Origin: an uncultured bacterium
GTDB lineage: Bacteria; Verrucomicrobiota; Kiritimatiellia; CAIKKV01
Length of the DNA: 64,000 nucleotides
Assembly: GCA_938038445.1 (NCBI GenBank)
Contig: CALHRZ010000012.1
Location: 124,001 to 188,000, forward strand
Direction: 5' to 3'
The translations under genes were made by a program, and so were the position numbers. A model generated the notes under the pieces. That model was not told the DNA's origin. It saw nothing but the letters and a program-made list of their open reading frames with translations, and did no database searches. This document shows, in pieces, positions 22,766 to 23,815 of the stretch. How positions within the stretch are numbered: position 1 is the stretch's first letter; every line of letters starts with the position of its first letter.

Positions 22766-23815
22766 TCAGCGAATGAGAATCAGCGTCCCCCGGGAGGCTA
22801 TCTCCGTGGCTTTGAGTTCATAAAAGAAAACTTCACTCAATCCGGAATGCGTTGTACTACCCCAGTTGGAGATGCAGGAAATGCGAATATATTCCGCTGA
22901 GGCAGAGTCCAACCGTACCACGTCGCCCAAATTTCCTCCTCCAGTGCCAGGCGCGATCCGGAGCGTCGTCGTTCCTGCTTCGGGAAAAGAAAAGGGAATA
23001 AAGTTAACGCCATCCAAAGAGCGTTGCAGTAAAATCTCTTTCATGCCCCGCGTGGTATACCCGCCCTGTGAATAATTCCAAATCATTAAATGACTCATGG
23101 CAACAGGGCGCCCAAAACGAAAAACGATCCAGGCATTGGTGTCTCCATTCACCCCCAGCCATTGATAATTATAATCTCCAATGTAGGGTGTGCCATCGAT
23201 GGTATTCGAAGGGACGCGGCCTGTAGTAAAGCTGCTCCATGCCGCGACAGCCACATTCGTTAACCGCTCGATATTCCCCGGCTTATTCCCATAGAAACGA
23301 ACCGTGCTTAGACCTGAATAATTTGCCGTTCCAAAGGTGTTCAACGACCGGATTCTCAAATGCGTGCATGTGTGTTGCAAGGGAATCCGCGTCGATATAT
23401 TGTTGCTCGTGCCGCTTCCGATGGAAAGCGTAAAGAACGTCAGGGCAGTCAGGGGATTGGTCACCAATGAATAGTTTTCTCCCCAATCGGACGAAACTTC
23501 GATCTGAATGTTGCTCATTCCATAGGAAACATACCCCGTCTCATTGTAGTTCCAGACATGGAGGTTGGTCAGCGCCACCGCCTCATTGAAGCAATACTCG
23601 ATCCACCCGGTCTTCATGCCTGAAACACAGAACTGATCGGTTCTAGCCGTTGATTGTTCAAGCCCCTTGAGCGTATTTTCGGGGAAACACGAAGAATAAT
23701 AAGGGCGCGCGGAATCCACCACCGCCATCGTAGCCGATGGAATCTCAGCCGCCTGAAGTAACACCCCGCCTACCAGTACGATACCCCCCAAAACACAGCA
23801 CCTTCTCCAGCCCAT
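22766..23815 (-). CDS. Secreted protein with two discoidin (F5/8 type C)-like domains and C-terminal RGTLILIR tail
   Basis: Signal peptide; WIEYCFNEAVALTNLHVWNYNETGYVSYGMSNIQIEVSSD and WIVFRFGRPVAMSHLMIWNYSQGGYTTRGMKEILLQRSLDG repeats. Confidence 0.8.
   Translation of the reverse strand: MGWRRCCVLGGIVLVGGVLLQAAEIPSATMAVVDSARPYYSSCFPENTLKGLEQSTARTDQFCVSGMKTGWIEYCFNEAVALTNLHVWNYNETGYVSYGMSNIQIEVSSDWGENYSLVTNPLTALTFFTLSIGSGTSNNISTRIPLQHTCTHLRIRSLNTFGTANYSGLSTVRFYGNKPGNIERLTNVAVAAWSSFTTGRVPSNTIDGTPYIGDYNYQWLGVNGDTNAWIVFRFGRPVAMSHLMIWNYSQGGYTTRGMKEILLQRSLDGVNFIPFSFPEAGTTTLRIAPGTGGGNLGDVVRLDSASAEYIRISCISNWGSTTHSGLSEVFFYELKATEIASRGTLILIR

What the first reader, a model, noticed from the sequence alone, without database searches (positions are those of the whole stretch)
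22766..22792. Shared C-terminal tail (R/S)-G-T-L-x-x-I-R-stop on unrelated secreted proteins: candidate undescribed sorting or anchoring signal (locus 1, discoidin-like protein)
Three predicted secreted proteins of different architecture end in the same short tail immediately before the stop: RGTLILIR* (22766), RGTLLLIR* (33546), SGTLMIIR* (60709). I confirmed the codons by reading the minus strand. The codons differ (CTG/CTC/ATT, CTG/CTG/CTT, TTG/ATG/ATC), so this looks like selected protein sequence rather than a recent DNA duplication. The window's two beta-barrel-like proteins instead end in aromatics (SYWF, RLSF), as expected for BAM substrates, so the GTLxxIR tail marks a separate class of exported protein. 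It has no TM helix and no trailing basic cluster, so it does not match PEP-CTERM, GlyGly-CTERM or LPxTG. Inference: a terminal beta-strand tag recognised by an export, attachment or processing machine.
Basis: partly seen in the sequence, partly recalled or inferred. Interest (0 to 1): 0.85.

Follow-up and report, generated by a model that had tools for sequence, protein, structure and literature searches.

The report
Short C-terminal tag on exported proteins
Bacteria of one little-studied group end dozens of otherwise unrelated exported proteins with the same seven-residue tail, which looks like an undescribed address or anchor label for the cell surface whose reading machine is still unknown.

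Summary
The tail x-G-T-[LVI]-h-h-[IVL]-R-stop (h = hydrophobic) ends all three window proteins. A translated pattern finds it 29 times in the window's genome, against 0 for the reversed-pattern control, and up to 72 times in other genomes of the same class (probably Kiritimatiellia), where controls are 0-2 in nearly all genomes. It sits almost only at C-termini (23 terminal, 1 internal; chance predicts about 0.001 terminal). Tailed proteins carry signal peptides (19/23 against 72/267; p=2e-7) and differ in fold: discoidin, LamG, beta-helix, PATR, PMP, G8 and choice-of-anchor Q. The codons differ. In homologues the tail is kept while the linker before it is not. At the same position after choice-of-anchor Q, other lineages carry PEP-CTERM or a type IX domain. 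No Pfam or NCBIfam sorting model matches. The T9SS translocon SprA was not found in tailed genomes, with a working positive control. Exosortase is present but does not track the tail. Best reading: an undescribed, helix-free C-terminal sorting or anchoring tag working as an exposed terminal beta-strand. The address-label role is inferred from position; the receptor is unidentified.

The parts
22766..22792 (-). Tail 1: codons for R-G-T-L-I-L-I-R and the stop
   Evidence: strict pattern match, codons differ from the other two tails
22766..23815 (-). Tailed protein 1, 349 aa: signal peptide, DUF4457 and F5/8 type C (discoidin) matches, divergent linker, tail
33546..33572 (-). Tail 2: codons for R-G-T-L-L-L-I-R and the stop
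33546..36557 (-). Tailed protein 2, 1003 aa: signal peptide, G8 domain, glycine-rich beta repeats, tail
60709..60735 (-). Tail 3: codons for S-G-T-L-M-I-I-R and the stop
60709..64000 (-). Tailed protein 3, C-terminal part: DUF1565, PKD and choice-of-anchor Q domains, tail. The gene continues past the window edge to a start with signal peptide about 880 bases further

Best explanation
The tail is a C-terminal sorting or anchoring tag used across one bacterial class, probably Kiritimatiellia, on Sec-exported, beta-rich, multi-domain proteins likely bound for the cell surface. Proposed mechanism: the protein crosses the inner membrane by its signal peptide. The last seven residues (G-T-h-h-h-h-R-COO-) stay outside the folded domains as an exposed strand. 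A periplasmic or outer-membrane receptor binds the strand by beta-augmentation and moves the protein to, or fixes it at, the cell surface. Shown here: the sequence, its terminal position, its spread, its link to signal peptides, its presence on unrelated folds, its conservation against the linker, and its interchange with PEP-CTERM and T9SS signals at one domain position. Inferred: the receptor, the strand pairing, the destination, and whether the tail is cleaved.
For: Genome-wide excess over the reversed-pattern control: 29 vs 0 in the own genome and up to 72 vs 0 in relatives. Terminal position: 23 of 24 occurrences. Signal peptides: 19/23 vs 72/267, p=1.8e-7. In an alignment of 22 tailed own-genome proteins only the tail G-T is invariant, with R at 90% or more. 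Domains differ. In discoidin homologues the linker before the tail diverges while R-G-x-L-x-L-x-R stays. The same tail recurs in homologues found in an independent protein database. Eight of 22 tailed proteins have a choice-of-anchor Q domain; elsewhere this domain is followed by PEP-CTERM (L134, L140, L150, L159) or a T9SS-type domain (L155, ending KKMILIR*).
Against: No receptor or cleaving enzyme was identified. Gene content could not be profiled across whole genomes. The tail drifts (GTVFCIH, GTLVTVP, GSLFMFR, SSLLIVR, GTVFSTW), so the exact recognised feature is unclear. Tail and PEP-CTERM are mostly complementary, but one genome (G186) has 56 tail and 42 PEP-pattern matches. The structure models are weak: mean pLDDT 50 and 70. 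A purely structural role for the strand is not excluded.
Confidence: 0.6

Rival explanations
1. The tail is a folding or assembly element, not an address label: a terminal strand that caps beta-helix-like repeats, pairs subunits, or protects against (or flags for) periplasmic proteolysis.
For: Many tailed proteins are beta-helix or glycine-rich beta proteins, and several end with a related strand just upstream, such as PGTVRFV or GTIYWE. The tail alternates with other strand-like ends such as GTVFSTW.
Against: It also ends discoidin and LamG proteins. It occupies the position of known sorting signals after choice-of-anchor Q. In weak models it does not pack on the domain.
Confidence: 0.22
2. 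The tail is a reduced PEP-CTERM: the motif and start of the helix remain (PEP-G-T-L-x-L-L versus P-x-G-T-L-x-x-I-R), still handled by the resident exosortase.
For: Exosortase is present in 54 of 59 relatives and in 26 of 26 tail-rich genomes. PEP-pattern matches are near background in almost all tail-rich genomes. Proline is enriched just before the tail. PEP-CTERM sits at the same position in other lineages.
Against: No Pro-Glu-Pro, no helix and no basic cluster. No PEP-CTERM model matches. The exosortase of the window's genome is fused to EpsI and lies beside glycosyltransferase-type genes, as in exopolysaccharide loci. Exosortase is equally common in tail-free genomes. G186 keeps both tail and PEP proteins and has two exosortases.
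Confidence: 0.1
3. The tail is a type IX secretion signal reduced to its last strand.
For: T9SS domains end in a similar strand: KKMILIR* in L155, KGFITLIKEQ* in P0014. The last residues of the T9SS domain are needed for secretion, and the last 22 residues of HBP35 suffice (PMC11285876, PMC10202324).
Against: SprA is not found in 59 genomes of the class nor in the tail-bearing named genomes, while the same search rings in a Cloacimonadota genome at 1.8e-28. The type B domain model is not found either (that search had no positive control).
Confidence: 0.04
4. The tail is a beta-signal for the BAM complex.
For: It is a C-terminal strand with G followed by hydrophobic positions.
Against: It ends in R, not an aromatic. 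The window's likely barrel proteins end in F. Tailed proteins show passenger-type or lectin-type domains, not barrels.
Confidence: 0.03

Closest known systems
Type IX secretion C-terminal domains, type A (TIGR04183/PF18962) and type B (TIGR04131/PF13585)
   Same: C-terminal, on Sec-exported proteins of varied architecture, many per genome, ending in a hydrophobic strand with K/R at or near the end (KKMILIR*, KGFITLIKEQ*); the end of the strand is needed for secretion.
   Different: T9SS signals are folded domains of about 70-100 residues read by SprA and partners. Here only 7-8 residues are shared, and SprA was not found.
PEP-CTERM / exosortase (TIGR02595, TIGR02602)
   Same: Many copies per genome, diverse signal-peptide proteins, same position after choice-of-anchor Q, genome with an exosortase/EpsI locus.
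   Different: No Pro-Glu-Pro, no transmembrane helix, no basic cluster; exosortase presence does not track the tail.
GlyGly-CTERM / rhombosortase and MYXO-CTERM / myxosortase
   Same: Short C-terminal tags shared by otherwise unrelated exported proteins, confined to certain lineages.
   Different: Those are tripartite (motif, helix, basic cluster) with intramembrane cleavage; the present tail has no membrane segment.
C-terminal beta-signal of outer-membrane proteins (BAM)
   Same: Terminal strand with hydrophobic positions.
   Different: Ends in R, not an aromatic, and sits on proteins without a recognised barrel.

Membership tests
PEP-CTERM | Near-invariant Pro-Glu-Pro motif | tested here: not met
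   No tailed C-terminus listed has PEP; NCBIfam scan of 22 tailed proteins gives no PEP-CTERM match at E<=0.1. PEP pattern: 0 matches in the own genome.
PEP-CTERM | Transmembrane helix and basic cluster after the motif | tested here: not met
   Only 4-5 hydrophobic residues and a single R precede the stop.
PEP-CTERM | Co-occurring exosortase | tested here: inconclusive
   Exosortase present in tail-rich genomes (26/26) but also in most others (54/59), so it does not discriminate.
T9SS C-terminal domain | Match to a T9SS C-terminal domain model | tested here: not met
   TIGR04131 in 0 of 59 genomes, without a positive control in that search; no T9SS model among matches of 22 tailed proteins.
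T9SS C-terminal domain | SprA translocon in the genome | tested here: not met
   PF14349 not found in 59 genomes nor in tail-bearing named genomes, while the Cloacimonadota positive control rings at 1.8e-28.
GlyGly-CTERM / MYXO-CTERM / LPXTG | Tripartite motif, helix, basic cluster | tested here: not met
   No helix or basic cluster in any tail listed; no model match.
BAM beta-signal | C-terminal aromatic residue on a beta-barrel | tested here: not met
   Tails end in R (variants H, K, Q, P, L); domains are discoidin, LamG, beta-helix and others.
C-terminal sorting tag in the general sense | Shared by unrelated signal-peptide proteins, many per genome, only at the C-terminus | tested here: met
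C-terminal sorting tag in the general sense | A cognate machine that reads it and a tail-dependent location | not testable with these tools
   No receptor identified; localisation needs experiments.

The most novel reading that the evidence does not exclude
A previously undescribed protein-sorting system, spread across a bacterial class, that reads a seven-residue, membrane-free terminal strand (GT-h4-R) with a receptor unrelated to sortases, exosortases, rhombosortases and T9SS.
Probability: 0.45. Interest if true: 0.9.

Novelty: new variant of a known kind. Interest (0 to 1): 0.78.

Why it matters
C-terminal tags are how many bacteria label surface proteins, and known tags have led to their sorting enzymes. 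This one marks dozens of exported proteins per genome in bacteria that are mostly known from sequence only. It lacks the membrane helix that the tripartite tags share. Its patchy profile, rich in some families and near absent in others of one class, makes the search for its receptor a direct comparative-genomics task.

Tried and rejected
Chance: rejected. Recent DNA duplication: rejected, codon choices vary freely. Normal last strand of one domain: rejected. T9SS: rejected by SprA with positive control. Full type B domain: none found. Exosortase as the tracking gene: not discriminating. Strict mutual exclusion of tail and PEP-CTERM: rejected by G186. A first search of named genomes with the discoidin protein found nothing, and the full choice-of-anchor alignment was too diverse to search with; a smaller one worked. 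Literature searches for Kiritimatiell- with sorting signal, PEP-CTERM or secreted proteins found no paper; only the held open-licence library was searched. A search for recurring neighbours found no candidate receptor, only GntR/LacI-type and AraC-type regulators next to tail genes (6 of 58 adjacent ORFs vs 1 of 244 others, p=2e-4, though the query regulators were picked from neighbours) plus DUF4838 and sulfatase genes.

Full report
What was claimed. Three predicted secreted proteins in the window end in the same tail, (R/S)-G-T-L-x-x-I-R-stop, proposed as an undescribed sorting or anchoring signal.

Check of the observation. The three tails are there, on the minus strand, with different codons. 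The first window protein has DUF4457 and discoidin (F5/8 type C) matches, the second a G8 domain, the third DUF1565, PKD and two choice-of-anchor Q stretches. The third protein runs off the window; its full ORF of 1,405 codons has a signal peptide.

How common it is. In the window's genome (3.07 Mb) the strict pattern occurs 8 times against 0 for the reversed pattern. The loose DNA pattern (G-T, four hydrophobics, R or S, stop or W) occurs 29 times against 0. Across 348 genomes of the class the loose pattern reaches 72, 67, 61 and 56 per genome (G198, G203, G202, G186) with controls 0-2, while whole families stay near zero. The pattern underestimates the total, because variants occur: GTLITIR and GTVISVR in the own genome, and GTVFCIH, GTLVTVP, GSLFMFR and GTVIGVH in named relatives. 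The 348 genomes include single chance matches, so genomes with one or two hits should not be counted as tailed.

Which bacteria. Named genomes that carry the tail after choice-of-anchor Q are labelled Kiritimatiellae or Kiritimatiellaeota (JAQULY STD1_141, VSJD MMG_102_bin48), Lentisphaerae (RIFOXYC12_FULL_60_16), and PVC group bacterium T3Sed10_164. The class is therefore probably Kiritimatiellia; this is inference from labels.

What it is attached to. Of 23 complete tailed ORFs, 19 have a signal peptide by a crude rule, against 72 of 267 other ORFs (p=1.8e-7). Of the four without, one has an obvious signal peptide that the rule missed; the other three show none near the start of the frame, possibly because the frame is broken or incomplete. 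An alignment of 22 tailed own-genome proteins keeps only G and T of the tail invariant, with R at 90% or more. Domains include choice-of-anchor Q (8), beta-helix, LamG, PATR, PKD, G8, PMP repeats and discoidin. By BLAST clustering the 29 own-genome tailed proteins fall into 9 groups, a lower bound on independence because repeats over-link.

Selection on the protein. Tail codons use varied synonymous choices. In the discoidin homologues (58-62% identical) the residues just before the tail are unalike while R-G-x-L-x-L-x-R is kept. Homologues from an independent database end the same way: PPAGTLILIR and PPSGTLLLVR; and in one LamG/DUF2341 family of 120 listed proteins, many of them fragments, there are 8 strict and 9 variant tails.

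Structure. Two AlphaFold2 models put the tail after the last domain strand with pLDDT below 50. Both models are weak (mean 50 and 70), so this is only consistent with an exposed tail.

Position compared with known signals. The choice-of-anchor Q domain is followed directly by the GT tail in tailed genomes, by PEP-CTERM in L134, L140, L150 and L159, and by a type IX-like domain in L155. The GlyGly-CTERM paper used the same kind of evidence, homologues with different signals at one position (PMC3237569).

Known systems tested. PEP-CTERM as first defined needs Pro-Glu-Pro, a helix and a basic cluster (PMC1569441); none is present, and no NCBIfam sorting model matches the tailed proteins. Exosortase occurs in 54 of 59 relatives and 26 of 26 tail-rich genomes, so it does not separate tailed from tail-free genomes. 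The single one found in the window's genome is XrtD/XrtW-like and fused to EpsI, next to glycosyltransferase-type genes. In roughly fifty genomes with eight or more tails (hand count), the PEP pattern is at 0-4 per genome, mostly 0-1; the exception, G186, has 56 tails and 42 PEP matches and two exosortases. Tail and PEP-CTERM are thus mostly complementary but can coexist. The type IX translocon SprA was not found in any tailed genome tested, while the search finds it in the Cloacimonadota genome that carries a type IX-like domain. The resemblance to the last strand of type IX domains (KKMILIR*, KGFITLIKEQ*) is real, and the end of that strand matters for type IX secretion (PMC11285876, PMC10202324); this supports 'works like', not 'is a'.

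Mechanism proposed. A terminal strand exposed after export, bound by beta-augmentation by an envelope receptor, labels the protein for surface delivery or anchoring. The receptor, pairing, destination and any cleavage are inferred. The main rival is a structural role of the strand in folding or assembly.

Context. Tail genes often lie beside GntR/LacI-type or AraC-type regulators, with DUF4838 and sulfatase genes in some of the same neighbourhoods, which suggests roles in the use of external glycans. This is a lead only: the regulator queries were drawn from tail neighbours, and DUF4838 and sulfatase genes were not enriched among adjacent ORFs.

Verdict. A real, selected C-terminal tag on exported proteins, recurrent across one class, not described in the papers searched and not matched by the libraries searched. 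Its role as a sorting or anchoring signal is the best-supported reading, not a demonstrated one.

Noticed in passing
L202:322-4512 (G008) and about 1,340-1,410 aa frames in many genomes: An exosortase domain at the N-terminus of a ~1,400 aa protein whose C-terminus matches the TPR protein PrsT (TIGR02917); frames of similar length with an exosortase match recur across families.
   Followed up: partly
L200:8397-11862 (G001): A 175 aa exosortase-like protein next to a 985 aa MSEP-CTERM protein (TIGR04286), a separate sorting pair in a tailed genome.
   Followed up: no
P0022, P0023, P0028, P0030, P0032, P0035, P0044: LamG/DUF2341 relatives end in a different shared tail, (R/Q)-T-G-(T/S)-V-F-S-T-W-stop or close, preceded by a WWAD-like stretch; possibly a sister tag with the same GTV core.
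   Followed up: partly
G186: One genome carries both 56 tail and 42 PEP-pattern matches, so two C-terminal systems may coexist; useful for separating their machines.
   Followed up: partly
window:8138-9679 and L113, L139, L143, L188: Another recurrent C-terminus in these bacteria: a ~115-residue region ending in FYRVGVQ* or the like, directly after choice-of-anchor Q in several named genomes; window protein 8138-9679 ends similarly (FFKIVIPYP*).
   Followed up: no
window:13542-19044 and 36722-45096: DUF4838, sulfatase and sialic acid-specific acetylesterase-like genes lie in the same window as the tailed genes, suggesting glycan-use loci.
   Followed up: partly
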